From contig CM060193.1 of assembly GCA_030549335.1 (NCBI GenBank), positions 57,379,146-57,443,145 of the forward strand: a stretch of DNA of 64,000 nt, read 5' to 3'. A program made the position numbers and the translations under genes. Shown piece by piece: positions 2,480 through 54,946 of this stretch. Source of the stretch: Pontederia crassipes (Eukaryota > Streptophyta > Magnoliopsida > Commelinales > Pontederiaceae). Each line of letters begins with the position of its first letter. Position 1 is the first letter of the stretch. Below the pieces are notes generated by a model that had not been told where the DNA came from, searched no databases, and saw only the letters and a list, made by a program, of their open reading frames with translations.

Positions 2480-3130
2480 GGACTAGGGTAGACGCTCCTA
2501 CCAACGTGCGTGCACGTATGATGTGTGATCGATAGTAGGATGCGCAAGCGTCAGTTCAGTGATGGTGAGGCGCGGTTCAGAGATATCCGGTAGCAAACAT
2601 TGGCGGTGCGTACAGAGCGAGCGCAAGTGCAAAATGACCAGGGCGATGGGGGTGAGGTCATGCGAGACTGTTGTTGGTGAGAATGCATGGCAGTGATGGT
2701 GGTGGGGATCGAGGGTGGCGAGGTTGTTTTTGTGCCCTAGGTTTCAGCAGCGACAACGGCAAGGGTGACGACGACGGAGGCAAGTGAGGTCGAGGGTGGT
2801 GAGCGAGGTCGAAGGCGGCTTGTGAGGGAGACAAGGACGGCAGCAAGTGAGGTCCACAGCCCAGGGCGGTGATGGCAGGCGAGGTCGAGAGTCAAAGGTG
2901 GCGACGACGGGCATTTTTGTGCCCTAGGATGCGACGACGATGGATGCAAGCGAGGTCGTCGCTGGTGGTGAGCGAGGTCGAGGGCGGTTTGCGAAGGCAC
3001 AATGGCGGCGAGCGAGGTCCACTGTCGAGGGCAGCGATCACGGGCGAGGTCGAGGGCAGGCAGCTATCATCCCTCCAAAACACAGAGGTGGGGCAGGGGT
3101 AAACCCTTGGGGCTGCAAGTCTGCAACAAG
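2480..3130. repeat. GC-rich block with two-copy tandem repeat (~187 bp)
   Basis: The phrase TTTTTGTGCCCTAGG occurs at 2727 and 2914. Each copy is followed by the same series of GCGAGGTCGAGGG-type words, with GCAAGTGAGGTCCAC or GCGAGCGAGGTCCAC in the middle, so the block is an imperfect dimer of about 187 bp. Six-frame translations are low-complexity Arg/Gly/Val or Pro/Ser strings with no domain, so a gene is not supported. It could be cargo of a transposon whose ends are not visible. Confidence 0.6.
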
Positions 3131-3495
3131 ACCCCAGCTCTTGGTGCCTTTTTCTTAATAGTGATGTTTTGGCGTCCTTGTCCAAATGGGGAAACTGCTA
3201 GACCAAGCTTGTCAGGATGAACTGTGGCGCACTTCTTTTGTCTTGACTAGTTTGCTAGGTCATTCTAGATCAACTCTTGTCTGTATTGTGAAATTTTGAT
3301 GGGACCTTCGAGGAAAATACCAGATCCTCCCAAGCGAAATATATAACTTAAATATAGTTTTAGTTTAAAGAAATCTTATAATAGAATGTATTTTTAGAGG
3401 AAAAAAAACATGAGATCTGTATGCTAGAAGACTAGTTATTTCCACTTCTTTTTAAGAGGAAAGAGGATGACCTTCACTTTATACAAACATCCTTA
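3131..3495. other. Spacer, nothing recognised
   Basis: Mixed-composition sequence leading up to the small LINE tail insertion. No domain, TIR or tandem structure was found. Confidence 0.4.
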
Positions 3496-12857: not shown

Positions 12858-13124
<267 letters not shown>

Positions 13125-14417: not shown

Positions 14418-15645
14418 GTAACGAGTGATTTTTTACCATTAATTCCCGTACCCGTTTAGATAAACGACACTTCAAATGTAAATTTTTAATCACTTCTTAT
14501 GTGGACCGTTGATGAGCCAAAATAGGAAATAATGCTATCAATTCAAACAGGCCATTCCTACTAACTGATCAGGCAAAGCCCATCAAGACCCAGCCCAACA
14601 TTATATTATCTATTACCAATTTACCGCTAAACTGGCTTTTAGCGGTTTTTCATATTACTTAGTACTTTACATTATTTAATATAAAGATTAGTTTTTATTA
14701 AATTATTAGTCATGTGTATTACCTTATTTACTATGTGCAAGTAATCTTTTTAAAAATTTAAATATCACTAGTTACTTATAGTAAGATATTACTAAGTAAT
14801 GCATATTTTTTCCTAAAATATTCTTTATCACTAATGTCAAGTTCAAGTTTATTTAATCCGATTATAAAAAATCATAATTATAAATTAAATAAATATATTT
14901 ATAAATATCTTATAACTTTTAAAATGAAATAATGGTAATAAATCTATGCAATATTCAAAATAATAAATAATAATATGCAATTCATGTGAATAACAATAAT
15001 AAAGCAATCATTTAAATTAGTTGATATTATTAATTATGATAATAATAAAGGCAATAATATTTTTTTATGTTATATATGTTTTTATATTATTTCATATTTT
15101 ATTTGTCTAAAATTGAAAGGACATAAATGAAAAGAAAATAAAATCTCTTGAACGTCAATTTAGATAGACATCCTCTACTATTTGGCTTTATGTGACAAAG
15201 TTAGTAGTTCGATTAGTGGATAGTGGTTCGATAAGTGGATAACGATTTAAGTAGAGAAAAGTAATTAGTTATCATCGAACAAAAATAGACATAACAACAT
15301 AATTTAGATTTATTCTTATAAGGAATAATTATTAATTAAAATTATTTTATTTTGAATATAATTTATTTAAAAAATATTATTTTAATATAAAAATTGATTA
15401 TTAAAATTAAAGATGTGATATGTAAAAATAAAAATAATATATGATGTTGAAAATTTAAATAAAAATTTATATTAAAAAATGAGGGTATAATAACAATAAA
15501 ATACAAAACCGCTTTATTATATAACCTAGTAGGAGTAGCTTATAGCGTTTTATCCTAAAATTTTTAAACGTTACTTCAAACACTTACACTAGCATTTTGA
15601 CTCAAACAAAACTCTACCCACTGCTAAATCAATTTAAAGCATAAC
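14418..15645. other. AT-rich spacer
   Basis: Very AT-rich. TTTAGCGGTTT near 14640 and AAACCGCT near 15510 could be the ends of a worn small transposon, but no target duplication was found. No gene is supported. Confidence 0.4.
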
Positions 15646-15649
15646 GAGT

Positions 15650-16283
15650 TTCATTATTTGAGCTTTTATTGACTCATATGTGAACTATAAGGAATTTTTA
15701 ATAGATATGACATACGCTCTAAAGATAGTTAAGCAATTGTGAACTCTAACAAATCTCTTTCTAGCTCTTATAAAGAAGCATGCTTATTCTCGTAGGTCGA
15801 ACGACTCATTTATCATTTTTGAATGAACGAAAGCAAATAAGTGTCCAATACGAGCAAGTGGGAGATTGAAGGGAAGTGCCCTTATTGGGCACTAGTGGGC
15901 CACACCACGCACGTGGCCCACTTGGGGTGACAGCTAGAGAGGGTTGCTGCCCCCTCGTGCAAGAAGCACACGCGTCAAGTGTGCACGCTAAAAGCGCGCC
16001 TAACACACACGTACATCGTGGGAGATACGAGTGCGATCCGCACGCTTACGTGAGTAGCGACCAAAATGGTCATTCATGGTCATTTTGGCCTTCTCTCTCC
16101 TCCACCAATCTTTTCCTATAAAAGGTGTCCAATATCGAGGTCAATGGTGTGCTTTCGTGTAGGTTCATTCAGATATATTTGTGTAGTGCGTCCATCTAGT
16201 GTTTGTATAAAAGTTTCGACGATCCGCTTCCACTTTAAGAGATATTCTACAACATTTGATTTATATATGTTATAATTCTAACA
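15650..16283 (+). repeat. Left LTR of the copia element
   Basis: Homologous to 24375-24420, 26133-26220 and 31719-32166, which together form the right copy. It contains a TATA-like CCTATAAAAGG near 16115 and ends AACA directly before the primer site. The 5' boundary is approximate, placed where similarity to the right copy begins. Confidence 0.75.
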
Positions 16284-17349
16284 TTCGTATCAAAGCATTT
16301 TTAATTTTTCTCACTTGTGATTGCGCCAAAAAAAATAATATTTGTTATTATTTTTTAAATCAATGTATCTTGATTGTATGATCACAATCGAGAGACAAAG
16401 TGGTCTTTATTATCATAAATATATTAGGAATGAACATAGACCATAATATATTTTTGTAATTTATTTTAATATTTTTGTAATTTTTTTTTTTATTTTATTT
16501 CTACATGTGTTGTAGCAAAAAAAAAAGGAAAAGAAGAAAAAGATGAAAACTATTTTTGCAAAGCACAAGGCCCGTCGGGAGGGACGCATCCATATGAACT
16601 GACTGGCCATCGGGAGTGGCCCAATACAGTTTTTTTTTCTTTTTGAGAATTTTCGATTTTTGTTAGAATGTTAAAATAATTAAAAAATTGAAAAATATCT
16701 ATGTTAAAATTTTATAAAATTAGGAAAAAGATGTATTTTTCTTAAGAATATTTTCTGTAAATTTTAAAATATCACATGCAATTTAACACTAATAAAAGAA
16801 AATCAAGTATTGATTTAATGCAATAATTAAACAATTTAGATTTGCGTGATATTGTCAAATATTTCCAATAAATGTATTCTCATACATGAAATAAATATTA
16901 TCATTTATGTATGTCATAATGATATTTATTATTGTGATTTAATATGGAATGATTTGAATAATTTGAAATTTGAATATAAATTCAAAATTGATATGTCCAA
17001 ATTTATTGCAAATAATTGTTTTCCTAAAATTTTGATTGTGTGTTAAAATTTTGAATTTTGATTAAAATTGACATATTCAAGTTTGGTAATTATGATAACT
17101 TGCCAAGAATTTTAAATTAAGTTGAAATTAAAATTTTGAATTAATTATTTTTGTAAGAATTAATTAACATATATGACAATATTATTTTTGGTTATGTGCT
17201 AAAATTCATGCAAGCCTATAACAAAGAATAATTAGTCGGTCTAATTATACAAATTATAGGTAATGAAATAACACATGAAACATTGGTAGTTCTTTTACAG
17301 GACTAAGACATCTTGAGATTCAAATATTGTCACAATAATCAATGACTCT

Positions 17350-20300
17350 CTGTTGAGTGGTGCATCTTACGAAATGCATGTACAGAAAGGTTCTGAAGAA
17401 CTGGCCTGGTGTATTGTTATTGCAATCTCCAAAAATATGGTTGACGTGTGAATGTGGTAGCATGATTTTTTCTGAACGGATGCCGAGACAAAGGATAGTG
17501 CGTGGTTATTTGATTGACGCCTTTCGGGGAAGAGCCCCGTTGCACCCGTCTTGATTGTTCTGATCATATTAGAAATAATCATGTGTCACTCAAAATGAAT
17601 TATCGTGATTTTGAATTAAAGTTTATTCAAAATTTATAGAGTAGACAATTTTGAATTATGCGTTAATTTAAAATTCAAAACTTAGATTAATTTTATTACA
17701 TTGTTAACATAATGAATGATAATATTATTAACTACGTGGTGAATGAACCTACACTGAAACAATGCCAATGCTAAAGGAATATGGAGGCATATAAGGTCTC
17801 TTCCAAAACAAATTGTATTACGCACACAATGTTGCTGAGCACGATGAACAATTCTCTCTTACGTGAATTCGAAGTTTATAAGACAATATTCGAAATGTGG
17901 ACGATGCTCCACAATAAGTATAGGTCATCACGACCACCAAGCATCTCATGCTCATGGTCAAATGTGACTCTTATCGAAAATGACTAAATCATACGATGAT
18001 GGATCATGTCTAGGAGATGTCTAACATGATTCATGAACTCAAGAATGTGGAACAAGTGCTTGATGACAAGCAACTGGTGTAGGCTCTGATCCGTTCTCTT
18101 TCTAGAAGTTGAGAACACATGTGTTATAACTTGACGCACAATAAAAATGTCAAAACTTTTGACCAAACTACTCATCATATTGAGATGGAGGGTGAGACTC
18201 TTCAAGTCATGTCAATCTTCTGAAGCATTAGTTGTTGAAAATGATGAAAAAATTTAGCTCCCAATTCAAGCGAAAGAGGTTGCATAAGTTGCAATCGAAT
18301 AAAAAGAGCGGAGATGCTGGATTGAGGAAAGTCCAAGGCCACCAACGCAAATGTGGAAAACATGACAATAAGGTACACATAAATAAAATGAAATGTAGCA
18401 AACGTGGTCACTTCGCTCGTGATTGCACTAAGCCTAAGAAGGTGTGTCTTAAACATGATTCATGCTTATGTCTCTAGTTGTGCTTTCATGGCTAAAACTC
18501 ATTCTTCATGCTTTGTAGATTCGAGAACCACATACCATGTAGCAAGAGATTACGGTGTCTTCATGAATTTTTATTGAATAAGTTCGAGGAGTAAATGAAT
18601 TTACCTTGTCAACAACAAAAATATTGAAATTAAAAGCATTGGAACGTGCAAGTTAGAACTTTATAACAACCAAATTTTTATCTTCACGACATTTTATATG
18701 CTCTAGTTTTTCGATAAAACTTACTTTTTGTGTTAGCATTATACAAAGTTGGTTATGTAATTAATTTCCAAAGGAAACAAATGGCAATATGTCTTGACAA
18801 TGTTCTTCTATGCAATGATTTTTCTTAATAATGATTTCTATATTTTAAATATAGCATTGGTTGCTAATAGTTTTTCTTTGATATCATCTGTTGACATGAA
18901 TGAAAATGTCAATATTATCTGTTGACGTGAATGAAAATGTCAATATTTGATTGAGACACATTGGCCAGAAGGCCTCTTGGAGTTTCTCACAAAAGTTGAT
19001 CTTCCAAACTGTAAGGAATTTCTCGTTGATAAAAAAAATAAGAACACCATTTGGAAAGGAAAAACACGTTGACTGCCCATTAAAATTAATTCATTTGGAT
19101 ATATGTGGTCCAATGAATGTTCACACAATACGCGATTTTTCTTACTTCCTCACATTACAATGTTGTATAATTGATTTTTATAAGTCCAAAGCTTTGGATC
19201 GTTTTGTTTGATTCATGAACATATAAAAAAATTAAGTTGATCGCAAGATTAAAGTTTTATGAATCGATCATGAACGTGAATATCTCTCTGGCTTATTAAA
19301 AAAGTTATATGATAAAAATGGTATAGTTAGGTAACTAACGGTATCAAGGACTCCGCAATGAAATGGTGTTGCAAAAAGAAGGAAACGTATCGTATTTGAT
19401 ATGGTTCGATCCCTAATGGCACAAGCTAATCTTCCAATATCTTATTGGAGAAATGAGATATTGACTATTGCTTACATCTTAAATCATGTACCTTTGAAAT
19501 CAACTGCGACCACTCCCTACGAACGTTGGACAGGTCGAAAGCCTAACCTTAGTTATTTGCGCCCTTGGAGTTACACAATCTATATTTTAAACAATTCTCA
19601 TAAGTATATCAAACATCGCAAAAATGTATCTTCATAAAATATTGTGAAACCTCTAAATGCTATGTATTCATAAGTAAAAGGTTGACTGCAAACCCATTGG
19701 CACTCATATGATGGAAGGCAGGGTTTTAAGTCTAGATATGTGCCCTAAAACTCTAGGGGGCCATTTGGTTATGGAATAAATACGAGAATACGTCGATATT
19801 CCGAGAATATAGCCAAACAACTCACAGAATAAGATTATATCGGTCAAAGTTTGAAAAACGTGAAACCACCTTGAAAAAAAGAAAACCGCCGTTTTATATC
19901 TCGTCAGAAGAATAAACTTATTCTTCTAAAATGATAGAATATGGTTATTCTCAATTTTTTTAGTTTTTTCAAACGTATATTATTTTTTAAAAATTCAATC
20001 ATATATTATTATATAAATATTATTATTATTATAATATTAAACGTAAGTTCTGTGTAATAAAATATTTTAAATATAAAATATTATATTTTTAAAATTTATT
20101 CTCTTCTAACCAAATAAGACATAGAATAAGAATATATTTACTTTTACGAGAATACGTTATTACACTACTTTATTCTCTTCAATTTTATTCTATAACCAAA
20201 CACCCCCTAGAGGAACAAAAAAAATGTCCAATATTTTCTATGCAAGTATGGTCGACAACCTGATATACAATATGATGTGTACTCGGCTAGACATATATGT

Positions 20301-20800
20301 TTTGTCGTGGGTTTAGTTAGTCAATATCAATCTAACTTAGGATGCCAACATTTGAAGATGGTGAAGAGAATCATGAGATTCTTCAACGACATTACAGATC
20401 CTGCACTATGTTATCACGAATGAAGTTTACGTCCCACTGGATTCACCAATGTCAATTGGTTTGGTGACATTGATGAACAAAAATCCACCTTCGGATACAC
20501 CTTCTTATTCCTCAATTGTGTTGTTACTTTGAGTAGCAAGAAACAAGATTGTGTGGTACTGTCAACTTAGAGACAAAATTCATAGCTTGTTCAGTACTTG
20601 TACAAAAGGCTCTATGGTTTAAACGATTTTTTCAAAACTTGAAAATTCTTAGAATGCAATGAAGAAATTATCCTCCGGTGTGATAATCAAACAACCATTA
20701 CTTATGTGAAGGATAAAAAATATCACTGCAAAGAAAAGCATATGGACACGAAGTACAAATTTGCACAAGATCAATAAGTCAAAGTGGAAATCTTGTACAT
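17350..20800 (+). pseudogene. Copia gag-pol remains (knuckle, integrase, RNase H)
   Basis: Recognisable blocks: a gag zinc knuckle CSKRGHFARDC near 18395; an integrase core with HLDICGPMNVHT near 19090; the integrase C-terminal half with YWRNEILTIAYILNHVP and TPYERWTGRKPNL at 19440-19560; and RNase H-like sequence from 20220. The element is badly degraded, with many breaks and missing segments, and a MITE lies between the integrase and RNase H parts. Confidence 0.75.
19756..20207. mobile_element. MITE (hAT/Harbinger-like) inside copia pol
   Basis: About 450 bp with terminal inverted repeats. The left reads GGGGGCCATTTGGTTATGGA and the right, in reverse, GGGGGTGTTTGGTTATAGAA, both followed by ATAAA. 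The interior is AT-rich with no ORF. CTAG borders both ends, but the site is palindromic, so the target duplication and the superfamily cannot be settled. Confidence 0.75.
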
Positions 20801-20899
20801 ATCAACACACAAAATTGTTGTTAATTCGCTCACCAAACCATTGCCTAGAGAGACATTATTGAGACATGTAAATGCTTCAGGGCTGTGTAGATTATAAAT

Positions 20900-21509
20900 A
20901 TAATAATGTACTCAAATTTTTTAGTGAATAAAAAATGATCTTTTGATAAATTTATTATTATAAAGGTTTTTTATCCATGTGAAAAATATGTCGGTCAGAC
21001 TTGAGTTTGTTCCCTCATACGAACAAACACTTTCGGCGCTTTTGAAGATAACGAGCGAGAAAAAATGTGTGAATCATAATATGATTCTAAAAAATATATT
21101 TTAGTAACTTAGTGTCGCATGATTAAGAGAGATAAACTAGATGTGAAATTCAAATTTGACGCTATATAAGAGCGAGCAATTTGAAAACTCAAGTCAGACG
21201 TTAAAAAGTAGTGACTAGACGTAAATCTACATGGTGTATAATTTTAATAGATCTAGACATACACTCATTCACTCATTTAGTGAGATTAATCATCCGAGTA
21301 CTTATGTTTAATACCAAGTATACTAAGACAACTTAAAGGCATGATAAATTGATTAGTTCAATTATCATTGAGTCTTTGACAAATTATTTATCTATACATG
21401 TCCAGAGACTTTTGACTATGTCTTAAAAAAAGGAATTAGTACTTTTTACTTTAGCGGGATACACAAAGATGAAAAATAAAGTAGCATGTCGAGCCATGTA
21501 TAGAAAAGT
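20900..21509 (+). other. Copia 3' region before the solo LTR
   Basis: Non-coding stretch between the RNase H part and the gypsy solo LTR insertion; it resumes at 24196-24370 up to the right LTR. Nothing else is recognised. Confidence 0.5.
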
Positions 21510-24195
21510 TATAACGCCCCGAGACCCACGTGACTTTCACGTGCTCAGATTCGTCCCAGAGGCGCTACTCAATCTTTTATAAAACATTTTTGCAAAATAG
21601 AAACAATAAATGCGAAAGATTTTTCCAATAATAATAGCTAATAATTCATAATATTCAAAATAATTAAAATATCAATAACTTCACAATTCTAGTAAATGCG
21701 GAAATAATAAAAATCTAGACCTACAATATGTGCAACATCTGTCTATCACTGAGCATAGCCACATGCAGCATCATCCTCTATCAAAGCACTCTCACCTGCA
21801 CGGATCTAGGTACAAAAAAATATCCATGAGTATAAAAATACTCAGTATGTAGGATTTACTAAACAATCAATATGCTCAATAAAAAATAAGATATGATTAA
21901 TGATGAGTTAATTGAGCAATCAATACAATAATCATTTAACAATATAATAATTTATCAATATGAACAATTATATCAGGCTATGGTCAAAAGATCAATCAAT
22001 AGCGATAACAAATAATAATTGTCTAATCAATTGGATCGATGATTCAATATAACAATATGACAATAAAGTCATAGATCAATAGGAAGGATCAATAAAAGGT
22101 CAGATAACCGATGAATATTGATTTAGCAATTAAATGTCTAATCACTATGGCACTATTCAATTTAACAAATTTTAATTAAATATCAATGGTCATTGGTCAA
22201 TAACAATTCCATTCGATTCAATGGGCGGATGCAATGCCAGTCAACGCTAGTATCCAAATGACCATGATCAATTCAATTCAATTCGATTTCAAAATCAACT
22301 CAATTCGATTCGATTTTAATTCAATTCAATTTAATTTATAATGTTCGGAGTTATCCAATTCAATGAGGAGCGGTCAGTCAATTAGGAAAAACTCCATGTC
22401 TCTTTCATGTAGGCCAGTGGGGGGATTAGTGCCACGGCAAGTCACCCAACAATATAGCGCTAACAATTATTCGTGAATGGTAGGGGACCATGATCAAATA
22501 CAAGACAACCATAACTTCTCTAAAGGATGATGGCGCCTCAAACCTTTAAATACACTATCTGCCCCATTCAATTCAATTCAATAATAATATGGCTCGGGAG
22601 TTTGGAGACAATCAGAGAACATGAAGATCCAGCAACTTTCAACTTTTATCTTGTTTACCTAGGATGTCTATCTTTCAGCAATTTAATTTAGGTGAAACAA
22701 GACTCTATCAGAAAGACTATTGGATCGATATCATAATCAATGATAAGATCGGATATGATAATAAAATATGATTAGATATGATTTGATAAGATAATACTAT
22801 TATCAGGTGTGATAATAATATAATCAAATATAATGATAATTTAATCAGGATCAATCAATAAGAATACAATCAATATATCCTATTTAAATAATAATAATAC
22901 ATAATCAGAATATATTAACGAAGATCGATTCAATAATATAATCAATATATCACTATATGAATAGGAAGATTAATATAAAAATCTAATAATTAAAAATTAT
23001 AAATAAATAACCCTCGGTCTTTTTTTTTCCTTCTATTCAATATCTTGTCTAGTTAAAAAAAATTCGATTAACGAATTCTTCCTTCTTGAATAAATCAAAA
23101 TCTAAAATTTCTTTCTCATATTTTTATTATATTTTTTCTTGCTACTTTGTTTCTGTGATAGCAGAGAAATCCAATTCCTCTTCCTATTGCACTTTCCTCT
23201 CTCCTATTTCCTCTCTTTCCTATTGCCCCTTTTTTTTTCTCCTTCTCCCTTGCGGCCTTACCCTCTTCCTTGCTTCTTTGATTCCTTTTTATTTTATTTT
23301 ATTTTGCTTCTCTCTCTCTCACCGTCTCTTTGGCGGTGAAACTCCTTTTTCAATTTATTTTTCTCCCTCAACTCCTCTCTGCGTCATGTTCACAGAACCT
23401 TTCTTAATTTTTTTTCTCTTTCTCTAATAGCCTACGGCTGCAATCCCTCTGCTCTCTCCAATCTTTCCCTTCCTATAACTTTTTTTCCTTTTGTTTTCTT
23501 AATTCTTTGTTTCTACAGGACGCATATTGTTCAACCCAAGTGATGCGCGACGTGATTACTCTTTTTTTTCTCAATTCTCTCTCCGGAGCACTTGCGCCAC
23601 GCCCTGAACATGTCCGAAGGTATTATTATTTATTTTCCCTCTATTGTTGAGCAAATGGAAGGTATAAACGCCCAAAATAATATGCGGCGCCGATCAAGTC
23701 CAACGCAAATCAATCTTTCACTAAAATACATAATAATTATTATGTATTACGATAAACCTACAGATTCCCCCTACGTATCCCGTTTCATATCTAGTCATTT
23801 AACGTCGAATCACGCCTTGCCGTCACCTCGACGTCATGCCACTGCCGCCGAACATCAAGAACCAAAGAGAACAAAATTCCTTTGACGGTTGACCCTCAAG
23901 ATTTATTTATAGGGCTCTTAGATCCTTATTTTTCAATCCTATTTATAACGTCCAATCCCAATTAAATTTTATCTTTTAATTAATCTCTTTTAACAATTTT
24001 AATTTATTTTAATAATTAAATAATTCCGAATTTAATTAAATAATTCCATAATATATCTTATCCATAATTAAACTCCTTTCCTATTTTCCTTTATTTTCGG
24101 AATTATTAATTATAATAATATTAATGGTCATATTTTTTTCAAAATAAAATGATAAAAAATTCATTTATTAAATCCTAAAAAATCAGGTCGCTACA
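21510..24195 (-). mobile_element. Ty3/gypsy solo LTR, 2686 bp, 5-bp target duplication AAAGT
   Basis: AAAGT at 21505-21509 and 24196-24200. On the plus strand the repeat begins TATAACGCCCCGAGACC and ends GGTCGCTACA, which is the layout of the LTR at 58015-61381. Read on the minus strand there is a TATA-like CCCTATAAATAAATC near 23910. No internal region remains, consistent with LTR-LTR recombination. The interior holds AATTCAATTCGA-type low-complexity arrays at 22200-22340 and a near-perfect palindrome around 23725-23750. Confidence 0.85.
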
Positions 24196-24420
24196 AAAGT
24201 AATTAGTTCACTACTAAAAGACATGAATTTAAGAAATAAAACTGTTATATCGCATTAAATTTTCACATATAATTAACCAATTATTTTTGTTATGTTAAAA
24301 AATATAGTGTAATTATCATGGGCAAGACATATACTGTCTTTACTATGCTATAAGACAGATATAAGGAATAAGTTACATTATTTGAGCATTTGTTGACTTA
24401 TATGTGAGATATCATGAATC

Positions 24421-26132
24421 CCAATTTGTTTAGATTGAGGAATAAGAGGAGATGGGGTGGAAAATAAGGGGGTGAACTCTCTAAAATCTTGTTTGACAAA
24501 ATTTACTTTAAAAGTTATAAGGGGTTTGGTGGCATGGGTTATACATTCACATCCTAATTTTTTCATTCCACCAAATTAGTGGAATGAGGAGGGTTAATAA
24601 TTTTTTAGATAAAATTATCCTTGATTAAGATTATTTTATTTATCCTAACTTTTTTCCCCTCATCTCTAATATATCTTTCTCTCTGCTACGTGCGAGACTC
24701 CTGTGATTTTCTATCATCTCCTGATTTCTCTCTCTCTATATATGGTCATCCTTACATGTAACAATTTGCAAACTCTCCGTGGCAAGCAATTTTTGAGGTT
24801 CTCTCTCCTTGATCTCTTAGTTTTGCAAGCAACAATTTCTCTCTCTCTACGCACTCTCTCATAGTTCTTGATTTCTTGATTTTGTAGACAATAATTTGAA
24901 ACTCTCAATGACAGACAATTTTTGAGATTTGTGCCCTCTCTCTCACCTCTCTCTGTACTTGATTTTTTGATTTTGCATGCAACAATTTAAAATTCTCGGT
25001 GGCAGATAATTTTTGAAATTTTCGCTCTCTATCTCATCTTTTTCTCCTTGATTTCTTGATTTTGCAAGCAACAATTTACAAACTTTGAGTGACAGACAAT
25101 TTTCAAAGTTTGCGTTCTCTCTCCTCTCTCTCTCCTTGATTTTTTTATTTTACAGGTAACAATTTGAAACTCTCGATGGTAGACAATTTTTGAGATTTGC
25201 TCGCGCTCTCTCTCCCCTTGATTTTTTGATTTTGTTGGTAACAATTTGCAAAATCTCAACGACAGATAATTTTCGAGGTTTACGCTCTCTCTCTCCCCTC
25301 TCTTTTTCTTCTCTCTCTTCTTGATTCTTTTATTTTTGTAGGCAATAATTTAAAATTCTCGGTTACAGACAATTTTTGAGATTTGCGCTCTCTCTCTCCT
25401 ATCTCTCTCCTTAATTTCTTAGTTTTGCAGGCAACAATTTGCAAACTCTAAGTGACAGACAATTTTTGAGGTTTGCGCTCTCTCTCTCCTCTCTCCTTGA
25501 TTTCTTGGTTTTGTAGATAATAATTTGAAATTTTCGATGGTAGATAATTTTCAAGATTTGCGCTCTCTCTCCTCTCTCTTATTAATTTCTTGGTTTTGCA
25601 AGCAACAATTTGTAAACTCTCGGTGACAAACAATTTTTGAAGTTTGCGCTCTCTCTCTCTTCTTGATTTTTTGGTTTTGCAAGCAATAATTTGAAACTCT
25701 GACAAATAATTTTTGAAGTTTGTGCTCTTTCTCTCCTCTCTCTCTTTATTATCCACATAATCTTTTTATTATCCATTTATGATGATAATATATAATAAAT
25801 CTTTTCAAGTTTATTTAACTAAAAAAATTTCAAGTTTCAACTACTCTTCTACTTTACCTTCCAATATTAACTTGTATTATAAATTAAACAATTTACTAAG
25901 TAATATAAATAAGAATAAAACATAAAGGGTAAAAAAGACTTTTATCTAAATTAACCTTTCAAACCCCATCTTTTAAGTATTGTATCCAAACAAAAAATAG
26001 TTTAGTTTATTCCATCCTTTCCCATTATTTTTTATCCAAACATGAGTATAATAAAGTCACATCACCCTTCACCACCTCCTACCACACCATCTTATCTCAC
26101 CCTTTCTTTAGTTATTTTTCAAACAAACCCTA
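24421..26132. mobile_element. DNA-transposon-like insertion in copia right LTR
   Basis: This segment interrupts sequence that is continuous in the left LTR (about 15700). Its ends are roughly inverted: the left has CCCAATTTGTTTAGATTGAG and the right, in reverse, AGGGTTTGTTTGAAAAATAA, both followed by GA-rich sequence. Such GGGTTTGTTTG ends occur in hAT- and Harbinger-type MITEs. It has no transposase; the core is a minisatellite. Exact ends and target duplication are uncertain. Confidence 0.55.
24805..25745. repeat. Minisatellite, ~11 copies, unit ~86 bp
   Basis: Each unit holds a CTCTCTC tract, CTTGATTTCTTG-TTTTGCA, then AGCAACAATTTG, ACTCTCGGTGACAGACAA and TTTTTGAGGTTTGCG. Copies start near 24811, 24869, 24957, 25048, 25135, 25217, 25319, 25409, 25495, 25580 and 25661. 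Units differ from each other by several per cent and in CT-tract length. The peptides seen in reverse frames are repeat artefacts. Confidence 0.9.
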
Positions 26133-26596
26133 AAGATAGTTGAGCAATTGTGAACTCTAACAATTTTTTTCTAGCTCCTATAAAGAAGTGTGCTTGTACT
26201 CAGTGGTTGTGAATGACTGACTTTTTCAATCCTTTCGACCTTGGTTCCGTAGGAGCAAGTCAGGCAAGCGAAATGGGCTTCTTTTGGAAATCCTAGCTAT
26301 TCTTCTGTGAAATATATACATGAATCCATTGCACATCAAACCCATGAATTTATTATCTTCATACATAAGAATAAGACGGTATTTTATAAATACGTAATTA
26401 TCTAACCCGAGTGAACATTCAATATCTCTCAACGGACATATATTTGAATGTTCACTCGAGTTAACAGTCTGGGACATTGAGGAAGATCCAAAAAGTATTT
26501 CGGGAGTATAAGGTTTTGTCACTTCTCCAACTACCTCCCCAGGCAAAGGAAAGGGTCGAGAAACTCAAGGCCACTATTCTTGACTCTTTCATGCCC

Positions 26597-26644
26597 ATGT
26601 CACGTCGAGGTACTGTAGAAGAAAAAACTGTAAAATCCGATCAG
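26597..26644 (+). pseudogene. rps7: Plastid rps7 5' end fragment (copy 1)
   Basis: Encodes MSRRGTVEEKTVKSDQ, the N-terminus of ribosomal protein S7 with two Ala-to-Val changes, then leaves the match. Confidence 0.85.
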
Positions 26645-26907
26645 TAACGGAATGCTATTGGATTTTGCAATGATGAGAATGAGCAAGAATACTTGCCAAA
26701 AGTGTATATCTCTCTCAATTCGACGATCCAGGGAAGAAAGTGAGGAAGAAAGCGACGTAGAAACAACTTCAGATATTCATGATCAAAAGGTACATTATGC
26801 TCCATAATCTTTTCGATTGCTCGTTCGAGACGACTTCGATTCTTGAATGATCCAAATCCCTTATCCGTGTATGGACATTTATCTCTCGAGCAAAAGAAAA
26901 GAATCAA
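26641..26907 (-). pseudogene. Unplaced plastid-like ORF fragment
   Basis: An 88-codon open frame with RSRLERAIEKIMEHNVPFDH and FLRRFLPHFLPWIVELREI. The style resembles plastid ycf reading frames, and the TATCCGTGTATGGACATTTA stretch at 26861-26880 resembles plastid inverted-repeat spacer, but the source gene was not identified with confidence. Confidence 0.35.
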
Positions 26908-27091
26908 TCTTTAAAAATTTCATTGTAAATGTGAAATACTCATATGTCATATAAATATAGATCTCTCTCAATATCTCTCTCAATTCGACGTTACGTATTT
27001 ACAAAATGCTGTCTCAATTCATCCTATTTCATCAACCAGAGACCTCGCCCGTGAAGTAAATCATCGCACCTACGATCCAACCAATTGGGAG

Positions 27092-27125
27092 AGTAGGATT
27101 TGAACCCGTGACATTTTGTACCCCG
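27092..27125 (-). pseudogene. trnP-UGG: trnP-UGG 3' half fragment
   Basis: The reverse strand reads GGGGTACAAAATGTCACGGG then TTCAAATCCTAC, the anticodon-loop to T-arm half of plastid tRNA-Pro. The acceptor 5' half is absent. Confidence 0.75.
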
Positions 27126-27156
27126 GCTCTTTGGTCTTAAAAATGTTGGTTTTAAG

Positions 27157-27272
27157 TCTTTCTTTGGCTGAGTAGCATGTACTTCCATGGTGCCCGTTTT
27201 TCCAATTATGAAGCATGGCTAAGCGATCCTACTCACATTGGGCCCAGTGCCCAGATAGTTTGGCCAACTATG
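27157..27272 (+). pseudogene. psaA: Plastid psaA fragment
   Basis: Reads [20 protein letters not shown] then [10 protein letters not shown], a conserved piece of the photosystem I P700 apoprotein A1. It is flanked by unrelated plastid pieces. Confidence 0.85.
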
Positions 27273-27806
27273 TCTTCAATATTGTAACCCTCCCATGGCA
27301 TATCTCGAAAAGCTGATTAGAGGTTCTTCTCTCCATCGAAATAATAGGGCCGTTATGCTTAGTGACAATGTGCGACGACATTCTGCCTATCGATTGCGTA
27401 AGGTCCGCGGTTGGTAGCAATGGAACCAACATTTTTGTGCTAGTACATCATTTTGCAAATTCTTAAGGGCTGAAGAGAGAGCTAGAATCCTCTTTTCGAC
27501 TTTGACTCTCCCACTCCAGTCGTTGCTTTTCTTTTTGTTACTTCGAAAGTAACTGCTTCAGCTTTAGCCACGCGAATTTTTGACCTTTTCTGCCTCTCTC
27601 TTCAGCCCTATGTCTCTTATCTCCCCACGATCCGAGTCCAAGCTATTGGAATTGGAATAGGTTCGGCAGGGAATTACGAAATCTTGAGCCGGCGACTCAT
27701 AGGCAGTGGCTTGGTTAAGGAAACCCACCGGAGCCGTAGAGAAATTCTTTATTTTCCGATCGCCTGGAAGGGACAAAACTTTATCTGCTGGGTTATGAGT
27801 ACTGGT

Positions 27807-28056
27807 GGGTATTTTGCTAGAGGTTTCTATCAATCTACCCTTGTGTGAATCCCCCTTTTCAAATCGGACGTGAGGGTTTCCTCTCATCCGGCTCAAGTAG
27901 TTATACCAAAAAAGGATTCGGGATCCTGATGTATATAGATACAAATGGTCCAATGGGAGCAAGAATTTCCAATCCGCCCTGCACCCACCCTCCGAGTATA
28001 TGATTCAAGAGGAATCACACAAGGGTAGATTGATAGAAACCTCTGGTAAAATACCC
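27807..28056. repeat. Inverted duplication within the NUPT
   Basis: Arms of 46 bp at 27807-27852 and 28011-28056, about 43 of 46 positions matching in reverse complement (GGGTATTTT, GAGGTTTCTATCAATCTACC and CTTGTGTGA), separated by about 158 bp. It is consistent with end-joining of plastid pieces in opposite orientation. Confidence 0.85.
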
Positions 28057-28220
28057 ATTCTATTGGATCAATTAAAAAATGTAATATTAGAATTCGAAAT
28101 AAAATAAGGTTTTGATTATTCAACTTAGGTGAAGTAAGTTTCATTCATTGATTAGCAGAATGTCGTCGCCCATTGTCACTAAGAAACTGAAAGAAACCTC
28201 ATAAATAGAAGATAGGATTT

Positions 28221-28263
28221 ATGGCTACACAAAGCGTCGAGGGTAGTTCTAGATTTGGGCCAA
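28221..28263 (+). pseudogene. psbH: Plastid psbH 5' end fragment
   Basis: Encodes MATQSVEGSSRFGP, the start of the photosystem II H phosphoprotein, then passes abruptly into unrelated sequence. Confidence 0.85.
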
Positions 28264-28634
28264 ATACATACGCGAGGAAGGTAATCAAAAAAGAGAGGAG
28301 AAACGTGTCAAGTATCCGCCTGGGATAATGTCTTCTTAGGTCTAACCGGAGTTCGCGGTGGTGGAGGAACCGGATCGAAAAAATGAGGGATTGATATGGA
28401 CACATCTGAGATCAACAAATGCTCAGATGCATCCATTTGCGTCAAGGGTCCTAGATATGTAACCGCCTAAGATATCATTACGTGATGATTTTATTGAAAA
28501 AGACGGAAGTCGAATCAAATGATCGAGTCAATTCCATGATTATAAGTTCATAACTCCAGTATATCCATAATCAAAAATGTTTTTGTGATTGTGCCATGGG
28601 TTACTTCCGCACTGTAGCGCCTTGGTACTCCCCC

Positions 28635-28665
28635 TTTTTCCGCCCGACTCTTTGGTCTTAAAAAT
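28635..28665 (-). pseudogene. trnA-UGC: trnA-UGC intron fragment
   Basis: Plus strand TTTTTCCGCCCGACTCTTTG plus GTCTTAAAAATG matches, in reverse, the end of the plastid trnA group II intron. A shorter copy lies at 27125-27146. Confidence 0.6.
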
Positions 28666-28796
28666 GGGTACATAAGAAATGTATCGAATAAATTCTTTTT
28701 ATAACCATAAAGGTGAGTAGAGACCTAAAAGATCGAACTTTGATGACTCGATCTGCCTACACGTCTTGCTTTTACTGCCAGATTTGGATGTTCAAT

Positions 28797-28824
28797 CCGC
28801 TCTACCAACTGAGCTATATCCCCC
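28797..28824 (-). pseudogene. Plastid tRNA 5' half (trnA-like)
   Basis: The reverse strand reads GGGGATATAGCTCAGTTGGT then AGAGC, a D-arm half as in trnA-UGC. The other half is missing, so it is not a tRNA gene. Confidence 0.6.
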
Positions 28825-29003
28825 CGGGCCAAGTGGAGTATGCATGAAAGAGTCAGATGCTTCTTCTATTCTTTTACCTGGCGCAATTGGGCCATCCTGG
28901 ACTTGAACCAGAGACCTCGCCCGTGAAGTAAATCATCGCACTCAGTCATTGTGGTCGGACTCTATTATGGATTTCTGACCACATTCTCCATAGGGCCCTC
29001 TTA

Positions 29004-29294
<291 letters not shown>

Positions 29295-29539
29295 TCAGGA
29301 AGGAATTGGAATGTAATAATATGGCTCGTAGTGAATTAATAAGACGAATAAGGACTCTAGAAACAAAAAATGGATCTTTTGCACTCAAAAAAAGAATCCG
29401 ATTTCTTTCTGTTACTTCGAAAGTAGTTGCTTTAGCTTCAGCCACGTGAATTTTTGATATTCCAATGGGTCTGAAAAAGCATCTAAAAGGGTGAAATTTA
29501 GATATTTGCACCCTGTCGAAGTAAGGAACCATGGGGATT

Positions 29540-29576
29540 TACCCGGTGTGAGATATCACATTGTTCGAGGAACCCT
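29540..29576 (+). pseudogene. rps12: Plastid rps12 fragment (copy 1)
   Basis: Encodes [11 protein letters not shown] of ribosomal protein S12. A longer copy lies in the opposite orientation at 30455-30600. Confidence 0.75.
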
Positions 29577-29961
29577 AGTATTGATTTGACCCCATAAGCA
29601 GAACCATCACCCAATAGCATGTTGCCATCAGAAGTAGAACCCCGTATTTCTTCTAGTTTTTCTAATTGTTCCAGAAGAAGTGAAACAAAAGATAGGGTAG
29701 AACTAGGGAATGTATATGCTGTAGAAAAATTACGGAATCTGATTCTTTTTGGGTTATAGTTGATGGTTATTTCTTATGGACAATTCCTCACTATCTTGTT
29801 CATTCGCAACAAAATCCATGAATCCGGATCTTGATGTATATAGATACAAATGGTCCAATGGGAGCAAGAATTTCCAGGAACATTTGGAACATTTTGTTTC
29901 TGAACCGGAGTTCGCGTTGGTGGAGGAACCGGATCGGAAAAATGAGGGATTCTAGTTGTGA

Positions 29962-30057
29962 GAGCCTTCGTATCTTAATGCATGTATTTAATTTATTCGG
30001 AGCTTTTGCTAATTCGAATTGAAGGGTGATATCAAATCGATCTATTTTTGGCGTCAT
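29962..30057 (-). pseudogene. ycf2: Plastid ycf2 fragment with internal deletion
   Basis: Reads IDRFDITLQFELAK fused directly to APNKLNTCIKIRRL. These are two parts of ycf2 that lie apart in the intact gene. Confidence 0.8.
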
Positions 30058-30254
30058 AGTGTTTCTCCAAAATAAATTTTTATTTCTAGTAAAAAAGATT
30101 TCTTCAAAAATTTCTGATCTCTAGTGGACCTCTCAATAAGATTCGAACCCAGATGAAGTTCTGACCACCTGTCAGAGAAAAAAGAACGAATTGATCTTGT
30201 AGGATTACCAAGAAATTCTTCGATTTCTTTTGGAAGCAGATGAATATTTTGGGT

Positions 30255-30340
30255 GTTTCAGCTTGAGCTGTACGAGATGAAATTCTCATATATGGTTCTC
30301 GGAGGGGGAGTCTCCCTATCTCAATAAAGTCTATGATTCC
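30255..30340 (+). pseudogene. petB: petB group II intron end and exon 2 start
   Basis: GAGCTGTACGAGATGAAA and ATTCTCATATATGGTTCTC form the domain V hairpin of a plastid group II intron. After CTCCCTATCTC the exon resumes with AATAAAGTCTATGATT (SKVYD of cytochrome b6, first residue altered). Confidence 0.75.
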
Positions 30341-30454
30341 AAATCCAGAAAATAGATAGGATTCTAGGATTATTCCTTGGGGCCAATTCCGTAGCTTTTT
30401 GTTCAATTTCTCGTGGAGTAAAATTCTCAGAACTCAATAGTTACACCTACTTGC

Positions 30455-30600
30455 TCAACGCCATTGTTGACAATCCTTTACTCCGATAGCATCTAGGGTT
30501 CCTTGAACAATATGATATCTCACACCGGGTATATTCTTAATCCTTCCTCCTCTTACTAATACTACAGAATGTTCTTGTAAATTATGGCCAAATAAGATAT
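30455..30600 (-). pseudogene. rps12: Plastid rps12 3' part (copy 2)
   Basis: Reads [20 protein letters not shown], then [18 protein letters not shown], the C-terminal half of ribosomal protein S12, ending before the normal C-terminus. Confidence 0.9.
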
Positions 30601-30702
30601 CTAGAGAAATCTTTGAAGATAGAACGGTGTTACTTCCCTTTTTGTCCAAGTCACTTGAAAAGTGATGATTCAACATAGATTCTTCCCTAGGACCATTATA
30701 GT

Positions 30703-30741
30703 TACGACTGCCGTTCACCGGGGCTTCGGTCGCCGGCTCCT
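30703..30741 (-). pseudogene. rrn23: Plastid rrn23 fragment
   Basis: Plus strand ACGACTGCCGTTCACCGGGG then CTTCGGTCGCCGGCTCC is the complement of a conserved 23S rRNA segment; only about 39 bp remain. Confidence 0.75.
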
Positions 30742-30754
30742 CTATCATCGCAGA

Positions 30755-30865
30755 CATTTCTGCAACACCTCTAACAGAGGAACAAATAGTAAATTTGGAA
30801 AGAACTTATTGTCAGCCTCTTTCAGATATGAATCTATCTGATTCAGAAGGGAAGAACTTCTCCTC
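30755..30865 (+). pseudogene. ycf2: Plastid ycf2 fragment
   Basis: Reads [20 protein letters not shown] then LSDSEGKN, a characteristic ycf2 stretch, then departs. Confidence 0.85.
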
Positions 30866-31072
30866 TTTTTTTATCAATACCGAGTCCGGTTCTTCTCCTA
30901 CCAGTATCGAATAGAACCTTGTTCCTACATGACCTGATCAATTCGATCAGGCACTCACCATCTATTTTCATTGTTCAACTGTTTGGTATTGGCCATAATT
31001 TCTATAGTATTAGTAAGAGTCATTTTTAGCCCTTATAAAAAGAAAACTGATTCTTGAACCTCTTTCATGCCC

Positions 31073-31126
31073 ATGTCACGACGAGGTACTGCAAAAGAAA
31101 AAACTGCAAAATCCGATCCAATTTAG
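31073..31126 (+). pseudogene. rps7: Plastid rps7 5' end fragment (copy 2)
   Basis: Encodes MSRRGTAKEKTAKSDP, closer to plastid S7 than the copy at 26597. The two copies sit near opposite ends of the collage. Confidence 0.85.
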
Positions 31127-31382
31127 TTCCGAATCGAATCTCTTTAGAAAGAAGATCTTTTTTTGTCTCATGGTAGCCTGCTCCAGTCCCCTTACGGAAC
31201 TTTCGTTATTAGGTTAGCCATACACTTTACATGTTTCTAGCAATAACTGTAAGAACCTATCTTGATTTTTCTTTTGCCAGGCCCATAACTAAAAAACCTA
31301 CTTTCTTACGATTATGAGGTTTATTCGAATATGAAATTCAATCTTAAAAGAGCGTGGAGGTTCGAGTCCTCTTCATGCCCCA

Positions 31383-31414
31383 CGCCGTGATCGAATGAGA
31401 ATGGATAAGAGGCT
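31383..31414 (+). pseudogene. Plastid rrn16 upstream/leader fragment
   Basis: CGCCGTGATCGAATGAGAAT plus GGATAAGAGGCT is the plastid trnV-rrn16 spacer that carries the 16S promoter region; 16S itself is absent. Confidence 0.75.
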
Positions 31415-31718
31415 AATTTTCTTCAATATCTTTTTGTTGATTTTGTTTTCGTATATTTGAGCCATCTTCTTCTGGAAATTCTGGCTATTCTTAGCATGAT
31501 ATTGGGGAATCTCATTGCTATTTCTTTTTTGGGAGTGATTCATCCTTCCCGAACGTAGCAATGAAACTTCCATGGAAGAGAAGCAAATGAAACACTTTCA
31601 TAAAAATTCTCGTAGAATCGAGAATGAAGTCGAAATAATGCATACATTTGTCTCATATTTCTTCTAGAACAATCAGAAAAACTTTTTTGATTATGGATCT
31701 ACTACCAGAAAAAGTCGC

Positions 31719-32166
31719 AAGACCTATTTATCATTTTTGGATGAACGAAAGAGCAAATAAGTGCCCAATGTGGTGGAAGATTGAAGGGGAATGCAATTAT
31801 TGAGAGGGTTTCTGCCCCCTCGTGCAAGAAGGGCACACATTTGAAAGAGCGCTGGCAGCGCACGTACATCGCGTAATATGTGTGTCTACGCGAGTAGCAG
31901 TCAAAATGGCCGTTCATGGTCATTTTGGCCCCCTCTCTCATTCTCCAACCTTTGCTTATAAAAGGAAACCAATGTCGAGGTCCATGTGTACTTTTATATA
32001 TGTTCATCTAGAGATGCTTGTGTTATGACCAATTGTTCTCTTTCTCGAGGTTCGATTCTTGATCCTGAGATACAAATGCATCCATCCAGTGTTTGTAGAA
32101 AAGGTTCAACGTTTCTTTCCAGAGATATTCCACAACCTTTAATTTATATATGTTATAAATTCAACA
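31719..32166 (+). repeat. Copia right LTR, distal piece
   Basis: Matches the left LTR from about 15808 to 16283: ATTTATCATTTTTG-ATGAACG, CTGCCCCCTCGTGCAAGAAG, the GTTCATGGTCATTTTGGCC block, TATAAAAGG, and the AACA end. The earlier part of this LTR is at 24375-24420 and 26133-26220. Confidence 0.8.
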
Positions 32167-52809: not shown

Positions 52810-52924
52810 TACTCTGTCTTATTGATCTTGAATTTAAAGGTGATAAACTTTATTAGCTAAGTAAAATAGAATCCATAAATCTTTCACTAATTAGAGTTAA
52901 ATTATCCTAAGAGGTAATATCATT

Positions 52925-53400
52925 AATTGTAACTGTTCAACTTCGGTTGGAAAGAGAGTTAAAGTTCAAAGGATCTATCACCTCTTAGGATATCCAAAAG
53001 TTGTAATAAGTATTTATAACTTAGAACTTTGAACCTTACTCTAAGACTCTAATCCCCAAGAGCTTTATCATTGATTGTAACGGTTCAACTTCGATTTGCA
53101 ATAGAGATAAAGTTCTAAGGATCTATCACCTCTTAGGATACCCAAAGGTTGTAATAAGTATCTATAACTTAGAGCTTTAAACCTTACTCTAAAACTCTAA
53201 TCCCCAAGAGCTTTATCATTGATTGTAACGGTTCAACTTCAGTTGGAAAGAGAGTTGAAGTTCTAAGGATCTATCATCTCTTAGGATACCCAAATGTTGT
53301 AATAAGTATCTATAACTTAGAGCTTTGAACCTTACTCTAAGACTCTAATATACAAGAGCTTTATCATTGATTGTAACGGTTCAACTTCGGTTGGAAATAG
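52925..53400 (+). repeat. 148-bp tandem repeat, ~3.2 copies
   Basis: TTGTAACGGTTCAACTTCGG-type starts at 52925, 53073, 53221 and 53369 give an exact 148-bp period. Units contain AAGGATCTATCACCTCTTAG, TATCTATAACTTAGAGCTTT, CTTACTCTAAGACTCTAAT and CCCCAAGAGCTTTATCATTG. Copies differ at few positions. Confidence 0.92.
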
Positions 53401-54360
53401 ATAAATATAGGTTATAGATATTTATGGTATATTATCATAATTATTATTAAAGTTTAATACTTATGGTATCACCATTGGGTAGATACTTATATTTTAGCAT
53501 TAAAACTATGAGGTAACTATTTAATCTTAGAGTAAGGATTTGTTACAACTAGGGATGTACATACTATAAGGTTAAGAGTAATATTTCCATGTTGAGTATC
53601 TATAATTAGAGTAAGATAGATATTATTTTCCTTCACACAAACAAGAAGAGATCACAAAAGGTAATCTGACATATGGGGCGATAATGGAAAGGTGTGTTAT
53701 TATGAGTGGACGGCATATAAAAAGTGAATTTTTAGATTCATCAGTGAGGGTCATCCGCGATTATAATAGGTTTGGTGATAATCATAACATGTATAGATAA
53801 TAGAGTATTTATTCTCTATCATCGCCCATATGTCAATTATAATGTAGATACTTATAATTATCCCCAAATGTAAACTACCCAAAGGTATAACGATAGATCA
53901 ATACCTTACTCTAACTTCAACTTAATTATCTAGAGACCTTTGGGTATTATAATATTTAAATAGGATCTTAAACTGATATACTTATTAAATTCATATAATT
54001 ACCTTAGAGTAATAACATATATCCTATAACCATCCCATTTCCAACTATCAAAGTTCAAAGCTCTATAAGGTTAAATGATATTATAAGTAGTCTTATTATA
54101 AAGTTTATAATGATATTGGAGGATTACTAACTGTACTATTAATATTTTAGTATAAAGTTACTATAATATATTGTATAATAAGATTATAATGATATAGACT
54201 ATAGTATATTATAACTAAGTTAGAGCTATAGGTTTAATATCTATTACCTAAACTTTATCAAACATACGGAGTAAGGCTATTATATATGTGATACCCAATT
54301 GTCAAATATTACACCTAACCTTAATCACCAACATACTTACTAATATCCTTCACCAATGTA
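53401..54360. other. AT-rich spacer within satellite region
   Basis: No gene. It is rich in words reminiscent of the 148-bp unit (AGTATCTATAAT, CTTAGAGTAA) but not in register. Confidence 0.5.
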
Positions 54361-54734: not shown

Positions 54735-54915
54735 ATTATCTCTATTGCAAACCGAAGTTGAACTGTTACAATCAATGATAAAGCTCTTGGGGATTAGAGT
54801 CTTAGAGTAAGGTTCAAAACTCTAAGTTATAGATACTATTTACAACCTTTGGGTATCCTAAGAGGTCATAGATCCTTAGAACTTTAACTCTATTGCAAAC
54901 CGAAGTTGAACCGTT
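54735..54915 (-). repeat. 148-bp repeat in inverted orientation
   Basis: CTCTATTGCAAACCGAAGTT, GAACTGTTACAATCAATGAT and AAAGCTCTTGGGGATTAGAG: the reverse complement of the unit at 52925, slightly more than one copy, ending at GAACCGTTG. Confidence 0.88.
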
Positions 54916-54946
54916 GGTATATTAACTTTTAACTATATTATCATAT

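What the first reader, a model, noticed from the sequence alone, without database searches (positions are those of the whole stretch)
15650..32166. A single ancient copia element opened by four nested insertions
Blocks of one LTR at 15650-16283 reappear in three pieces at 24375-24420, 26133-26220 and 31719-32166, in the same order. The gaps are filled by a transposon-like segment and by a plastid collage, while a MITE and a gypsy solo LTR sit in the interior. Removing all four leaves about 6.2 kb, a normal copia size. This gives a relative time order: copia first, everything else later.
Basis: partly seen in the sequence, partly recalled or inferred. Interest (0 to 1): 0.75.

Follow-up and report, generated by a model that had tools for sequence, protein, structure and literature searches.

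The report
Old retrotransposon with shredded plastid insert
A very old plant copia retrotransposon, present at the same place on two duplicated chromosome segments, was later opened on one of them by four insertions, one of which is plastid DNA shredded into dozens of roughly 60-base scraps and stuck back together at random.

Summary
In three of three genomic copies with both ends read, the LTR starts directly after the polypurine tract. The window's LTRs are therefore 15867-16283 and 31782-32166. The block 15631-15866 is the end of the internal region, stranded before the left LTR, probably a remnant of a tandem element. The four insertions lie in the internal region and break neither LTR.

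The inserts are a MITE, a solo LTR with 5-bp target duplication, a repeat-family transposon, and a plastid insert at 26200-31711. A duplicated locus on contig C12 carries the same copia at the same place without them. Copia thus predates the duplication; the four inserts follow it. LTR-LTR divergence is 0.21-0.30, against 0.12-0.15 between homologous LTRs.

The plastid insert is the most unusual part: at least 65 pieces, 56 of them under 100 bp, shuffled and inverted. Seventeen resolved joins show 0-5 bp microhomology, and some donor sites recur. About a quarter of the insert is still unassigned. Complex plastid insertions are known; this one is extreme in grain.

The parts
15631..15866 (+). 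End of copia internal region (ends in polypurine tract CAAGTGGGAGAT), stranded 5' of the left LTR
   Evidence: 3 of 3 genomic copies with both ends read show no such tail before their 5' LTR; shared with C12
15867..16283 (+). Left LTR (417 bp, TG...CA)
16285..16296 (+). Decayed primer-binding site (initiator-Met type by recall); C12 reads TGGTATCAAAG at this place
   Evidence: Sequence
16297..24421 (+). Copia internal region, decayed gag-pol, interrupted by the MITE and the solo LTR; lacks about 0.24 kb at 17726 and about 1.08 kb at 19673-19680 that C12 keeps
   Evidence: only sub-threshold Pfam hits; relatives
19756..20206 (.). Insertion 1: MITE with TIRs GGGGG.../...CCCC; target duplication CTA (or TA)
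   Evidence: 39 other scored loci at 86-93%, most with nearly the same ends; joined flanks 56/60 identical to C12
21510..24195 (.). Insertion 2: solo LTR, 2,686 bp, target duplication AAAGT at 21505-21509 and 24196-24200
   Evidence: relatives include 8 LTR pairs 5.76-6.0 kb apart; 54/60
24424..26130 (.). Insertion 3: about 1.7 kb transposon of a repeat family with internal ~85-bp tandem repeats; about 20-25 bp of copia lost at its left edge
26131..26199 (+). Copia internal tail, middle piece
26200..31711 (.). Insertion 4: shredded plastid collage, at least 65 pieces, 5.5 kb, about 74% of it assigned to donors
30457..30591 (-). Example piece: plastid rps12 fragment
   Evidence: under NCBIfam cut-off; best solved match is chloroplast S12
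30747..30859 (+). Example piece: ycf2 fragment
   Evidence: Ycf2, E 7.9e-18
30248..30338 (+). Example piece: group II intron end (general model above its gathering score; plastid ndhA/ndhB model below its own)
31712..31781 (+). Copia internal tail, last piece, with polypurine tract
31782..32166 (+). Right LTR (385 bp)

Best explanation
A Ty1/copia element inserted long before the segment was duplicated. Its left end was already unusual then: an internal 3' tail directly in front of the left LTR, most simply a remnant of a tandem LTR-internal-LTR-internal-LTR array whose upstream unit was lost (inferred). The segment was duplicated to C11 and C12 (shown as a collinear duplicate; whole-genome duplication is inferred). 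On C11 only, four insertions followed: a MITE, an LTR element reduced to a solo LTR, a DNA-transposon-like repeat, and one end-joining event that filled a break in the copia tail with 5.5 kb of plastid DNA. That plastid DNA had been shredded to scraps of about 60 bp and ligated at random, often with short microhomologies, before or during integration (structure shown; single event inferred).
For: C12 keeps the element at the same site, collinear over window 10265-39488, with a further stretch at 45.9-47.2 kb. None of the four inserts is at the element there, and joined flanks match C12 for the MITE (56/60), the solo LTR (54/60) and, with a 4-base gap, the plastid insert (51/64). LTR boundary: in 3 of 3 copies with both ends read, the 3' LTR matches the 5' LTR from its first bases (91.6-93.8%) and the tail has no match upstream of the 5' LTR. 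The polypurine/LTR-start motif (up to 2 mismatches) was found in 14 of the 14 copies scanned, out of 20 regions fetched. Divergence K2P: LTR-LTR 0.21 (C11) and 0.30 (C12); C11-C12 LTRs 0.12 and 0.15, internal 0.09-0.11, flanks 0.044-0.087. Plastid origin: S12, ycf2, group II introns. Joins: 17 distinct resolved junctions have microhomology 0/1/2/3/5 bp in 4/6/3/3/1 cases, mean 1.5 against 0.74 for random joins, P about 0.005. Left plastid edge shares TC or TCA with the target as read on C12.
Against: No target duplication can be checked for the window copy itself, because its left edge is a truncated tail. Of the three full copies, only one has a 5-bp duplication. The transposon has no clean empty-site junction (48/62), and its terminal inverted repeats do not beat shuffles. 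About 26% of the collage has no assigned donor, and the targeted searches left gaps of their own: of three gaps searched last, one was filled, one partly, one not at all. Two of the 17 resolved joins have 1 and 3 unmatched bases between pieces. No plastid genome was available, so donors are nuclear plastid copies that may themselves be rearranged. The order among the four insertions is not resolved.
Confidence: 0.88

Rival explanations
1. One reading: the LTR is 15650-16283 and the right LTR was split into three pieces by the transposon and the plastid insert.
For: The whole block is repeated at both ends in order.
Against: In 3 of 3 copies with both ends read the 5' LTR starts at the TG after the polypurine tract and lacks the tail; copy L010 likewise starts at the equivalent of window 15869 at its 5' end; a polypurine tract would lie inside the LTR.
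Confidence: 0.03
2. The stranded tail comes not from a tandem array but from a separate older, 5'-truncated copy whose 3' LTR recombined with the 5' LTR of a newcomer.
For: Gives the same tail-LTR-internal order; L027 shows a locally repeated tail elsewhere in the genome.
Against: Needs two insertions in close proximity; the self-comparison of the window shows no second element upstream.
Confidence: 0.35
3. The four inserts were ancestral and C12 lost them.
For: C12 has its own private rearrangements, including a 10 kb LTR element in the same tail.
Against: It would need loss of four inserts, with the solo LTR removed exactly to one target copy; other family copies lack them too.
Confidence: 0.02
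4. The plastid collage grew by repeated insertions, or a longer insert was broken up and shuffled after arrival, rather than arriving as one ligated molecule.
For: Decay of long insertions into smaller, reshuffled fragments is discussed in the literature (PMC10789010, passages); about 26% of the insert is unassigned and could hide other DNA.
Against: 15 of 17 resolved joins abut or overlap with no base between, and the insert has one left and one right edge in copia.
Confidence: 0.12

Closest known systems
Ty1/copia LTR retrotransposons
   Same: Zinc knuckle, gag-pre-integrase, integrase and SH3 domain before reverse transcriptase, polypurine tract, LTR pair
   Different: The window copy has an internal tail in front of its left LTR
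Complex nuclear plastid insertions (NUPTs, rearranged or mosaic class; PMC6215612, abstract and passages; PMC7037861, passages)
   Same: Many organelle fragments in mixed order and orientation, joined with blunt or 1-7 bp microhomology joins
   Different: Grain: at least 65 pieces in 5.5 kb, median about 57 bp; PMC6215612 cites up to 100 segments in mixed plastid-mitochondrial insertions of 3-92 kb
Nested transposon insertions dated by a duplicated locus (general knowledge, recalled)
   Same: Shared old element, private young insertions
   Different: Nothing special

Membership tests
Ty1/copia retrotransposon | Integrase before reverse transcriptase in pol | tested here: met
   In relative L013, rve/SH3 at 1691-2404 precedes RVT_2 at 2582-3178; the window's own frames are too decayed (sub-threshold Retrotran_gag_2 and SH3 in 2 of 6 frames)
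Ty1/copia retrotransposon | Paired LTRs bounded by TG...CA with PBS and polypurine tract | tested here: met
   the PBS type is recalled
Ty1/copia retrotransposon | 5-bp target site duplication | tested here: inconclusive
   1 of 3 full copies (L013, TTTAT); not testable in the window copy
Solo LTR | Single LTR with target duplication; relatives as pairs | tested here: met
   AAAGT; 8 pairs 5.76-6.0 kb apart and one 9.4 kb apart among the scored relatives
Ty3/gypsy (for the solo LTR) | gypsy pol domains in a full relative | tested here: inconclusive
   The 3.4 kb internal part of one relative (L042) has a zinc-knuckle-like minus-strand frame; no Pfam hit in the 2 of 8 listed frames that were scanned
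Tourist-like MITE | Short TIRs, 3-bp target duplication, high copy number | tested here: inconclusive
   TIR (score 17, shuffled maximum 15) and copy number met; the duplication could be CTA or TA
PIF/Harbinger-like element (24424-26130) | TIR and 3-bp target duplication | tested here: inconclusive
   Score 17 versus shuffled maximum 21; left flank deleted
Nuclear plastid insertion (NUPT) | Plastid-specific sequence in nuclear context | tested here: met
   S12, ycf2, group II intron ends within copia flanks
Nuclear plastid insertion (NUPT) | End-joining signatures at joins | tested here: met
   17 resolved joins, 0-5 bp microhomology
Whole-genome-duplication homeologue (C12 locus) | Genome-wide collinearity | not tested

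The most novel reading that the evidence does not exclude
The collage represents a distinct grain of organelle-to-nucleus transfer: plastid DNA degraded to scraps of about 60 bp, ligated as a pool drawn unevenly from a few plastid regions (the pieces identified so far are ycf2, rps12 and group II intron ends, and the same donor sites recur), or copied by repeated template switching. It entered one break in one event. Because 56 of 65 pieces are under 100 bp, surveys with a 100-bp cutoff would miss most of such an insertion, and the class may be common.
Probability: 0.35. Interest if true: 0.65.

Novelty: new member of a known kind. Interest (0 to 1): 0.45.

Why it matters
The locus is a well-resolved stratigraphy: an element older than the duplication, with a duplicate that shows the empty site of the later insertions, three of the four to within a few bases. 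It corrects an LTR boundary that would have mis-dated the element. The plastid insert has both nuclear edges and many inner joins readable against an empty site; PMC6215612 (passages) says its own study left terminal junctions out for lack of close genomes. Its fine grain points to a possibly under-counted class of plastid transfer.

Tried and rejected
Considered and dropped: (a) 16556-17179 as a fifth insertion. It is absent from C12 but present in copies L010 and L017, so it is element sequence deleted on C12. (b) A target duplication around the plastid insert. The apparent 15-20 bp overlap of BLAST ends (26200-26228 with 31714-31731) went away once 26200 onward proved to be plastid-type. 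(c) The weak match 15301-15695 ~ 23995-24419 (60%): only its right end is convincing homology; the rest is AT-rich. (d) The terminal inverted repeats of the 1.7 kb transposon do not exceed shuffles, so its class stays open. (e) Lineage of the copia family and identity of the plant: not pursued. (f) A donor map on a plastid genome: none could be reached. A paper on earlier mosaic insertions was not held. Four paper searches found complex plastid insertions in print but no report of this grain in the passages I read; that is not proof of absence. One paper search on tandem elements gave nothing used.

Limits of counts: genome searches score only the 40 best candidates. Of its 62 neighbouring pairs, 34 lie within 5 bases of each other and 28 are separated by unassigned stretches (1,566 bases; 1,436). 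The 17 joins are my reduction of 27 rows (one join each; 29654 counted as 1, though another reference gives 3). The donor-reuse simulation assumes 85 pieces and a 135 kb donor (both assumptions). Several unassigned stretches were never searched alone.
Full report
OBSERVATION. Self-comparison of the window and local alignments with 200 shuffles each confirm that the block at 15.65-16.28 kb returns in three pieces in the same order, well above the shuffles. The window lies in a 1.13 Gb genome (43 contigs) at C11:57379146-57443145; a search with 15650-16283 gave 60 matches from the 40 candidates scored of 889, so this is a dispersed family.

WHERE THE LTR REALLY IS. Twenty regions with copies were fetched; one, L009, is the C12 locus described below. 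In 17 of the 19 others, window 21.5 kb runs directly into 24.19 kb; most then go on to 26.13 and 31.7 kb without the inserts. One copy, L010, begins at its 5' end at the equivalent of window 15869, although its 3' end includes 15632 onward. The motif GGGAGAT|TGTTGGAA, with up to two mismatches, was found in 14 of the 14 copies scanned (six regions were not scanned). For three copies I fetched the upstream end. In all three the 3' LTR, read from two bases inside that TG, matches the 5' LTR (93.8, 91.6 and 91.6%), while the tail before it has no match upstream of the 5' LTR. One of the three has a 5-bp target duplication (TTTAT); the other two do not. The window LTRs are therefore 15867-16283 and 31782-32166. 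That the same tail stands in front of the left LTR on C11 and on C12 means the ancestral insertion was not a plain single element. I infer a tandem array that lost its upstream unit; recombination of two neighbours is the rival.

THE DUPLICATED LOCUS. C12:13515001-13554900 matches window 10265-39488 in order, and another stretch at window 45.9-47.2 kb matches C12:13562005-13563930. The copia element sits at the same place on both, including its odd left junction and its right flank. K2P distances: LTR against LTR 0.212 on C11 and 0.303 on C12; C11 against C12 0.124 and 0.146 for the two LTRs, 0.091-0.107 in four internal blocks, 0.085 in the left tail; flanks 0.044, 0.056, 0.080 and 0.087. By the LTRs the element is roughly twice as old as the duplication. 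C12 has its own history: a 10 kb LTR element with target duplication AATTA in the same tail, loss of the equivalent of 16556-17179, and a 7.1 kb private stretch upstream.

THE FOUR INSERTIONS. None is at the element on C12; the only C12 matches to the collage are two short ones (about 50 bases) to a separate small plastid-type insertion upstream. MITE 19756-20206: 39 other scored loci at 86-93%, most with nearly the same ends; joined flanks equal C12 at 56 of 60. Solo LTR 21510-24195: AAAGT on both sides, relatives include 8 pairs 5.76-6.0 kb apart and one 9.4 kb apart, joined flanks 54 of 60. The "gypsy" label is untested in effect: the internal part of one relative gave no Pfam hit in the two frames scanned of eight listed. 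Transposon 24424-26130: a repeat family with matches mostly at 70-90%; about 20-25 bp of copia are missing at its left edge, its inverted repeats do not beat shuffles, and its joined flanks fit C12 poorly (48/62). Plastid collage 26200-31711: see below. The window copy also lost about 0.24 and 1.08 kb of internal sequence that C12 keeps. The order among the four is open.

THE PLASTID COLLAGE. Its longest listed match elsewhere in the genome is 155 bases. Seven nuclear plastid-type loci and seven searches resolve 63 pieces (median 57, mean 64, maximum 148 bases, 3,933 of 5,512 bases assigned) plus two, about 4,063 bases or 74% in all; 56 of the 65 are shorter than 100 bases. Neighbouring pieces come from different loci and strands, for example 28799-28941 (L036, minus) against 28942-29057 (L033, plus). 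Piece borders are shared by independent loci: nine loci match exactly 28155-28216 and ten exactly 28341-28392, and 12 loci start exactly at 26200. Gaps remain: in the stretch searched last, one gap was filled exactly (29402-29463), one partly (29057-29129) and one not (29251-29327). Plastid identity: S12 (Pfam E 7.3e-9; best solved match chloroplast S12, E 1e-19), ycf2 twice (E 7.9e-18, and one just under the curated score), two group II intron ends, one above and one below the gathering score; the plastid ndhA/ndhB intron model matches both places but below its gathering score. Seven of the ten frames scanned had no plastid hit in Pfam and nine of ten none in NCBIfam, as expected for short scraps.

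JOINS AND DONORS. Of the 62 neighbouring pairs in the list, 34 lie within 5 bases of each other. Seventeen distinct joins with references on both sides have 0/1/2/3/5 bases of microhomology in 4/6/3/3/1 cases, mean 1.53 against 0.74 for random joins, P 0.005 (0.011 if the 5 is counted as 3); 15 of them abut or overlap, two have 1 and 3 unmatched bases between. Three further joins appear to overlap by 8, 14 and 15 bases. At the left edge TC or TCA is shared by insert and target as read on C12, and a few target bases are lost. Ten pairs of places inside the collage share sequence; 20 Markov shuffles gave none, and uniform sampling of 85 pieces from 135 kb (assumed values) gives 2.2 on average, P(at least 10) 0.0002. 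Of six control loci, L032 (8 kb) itself shows three such pairs and five show none, so part of this may be repetition in plastid-type DNA. Best reading: degraded plastid DNA, drawn from few regions, ligated by end joining into one break. Repeated template copying is not excluded.

LITERATURE. PMC6215612 (outline, abstract and passages): complex insertions, 1-7 bp microhomology or blunt joins, earlier reports of up to 100 segments in mixed insertions of 3-92 kb, and terminal junctions not analysed for lack of close genomes. PMC3989485 (passages): hits of at least 100 bp and 90% identity were used, with median lengths of 175-514 bp by species. PMC10789010 and PMC7037861 (passages): shuffled clusters and mixtures of segments joined by microhomology. 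PMC12181080 (passages): end joining and microhomology-mediated joining both implicated. The kind is known; the grain here is finer than in those passages.

VERDICT. The LTR boundary was wrong, and the most interesting component is the shredded plastid insert.

Noticed in passing
C12:13535700-13546000 (L029, L030): On the duplicate, the same copia tail is opened by a different, about 10 kb LTR element with target duplication AATTA; stretches related to it lie in the window at about 40.1-42.6 kb and 61.4-64 kb.
   Followed up: partly
C12:13519853-13520269 (L031): A small plastid-type insertion in the private upstream stretch of the duplicate: two pieces collinear with L032 and 48 bases apart; unlike the collage it is not visibly shuffled.
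   Followed up: no
window 52918-53401 and L020 5436-9901: A 148-bp satellite unit in the window is about 86-90% identical to units of a long array on C9 that starts right at the 3' end of another copy of this copia family.
   Followed up: partly
window 54865-57872: About four head-to-tail copies of a unit of about 743 bp, 97.5% identical at one step and 93.7% at three.
   Followed up: no
L042 (C13:7099500-7102950): One full relative of the solo LTR has only about 3.4 kb between its LTRs, with a zinc-knuckle-like minus-strand frame; possibly non-autonomous.
   Followed up: partly
L027 4282-5249: The copia internal tail is repeated 529 bp apart on C4, a possible further case of LTR-proximal rearrangement in this family.
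   Followed up: no
window 12858-13124: Adjoining perfect trinucleotide runs (AAT)32 and (ATC)57.
   Followed up: no
window 28202-28216 and 31124-31137: Two collage joins appear to share 14-15 bases, longer than end joining needs; could be annealing or alignment over-extension.
   Followed up: no
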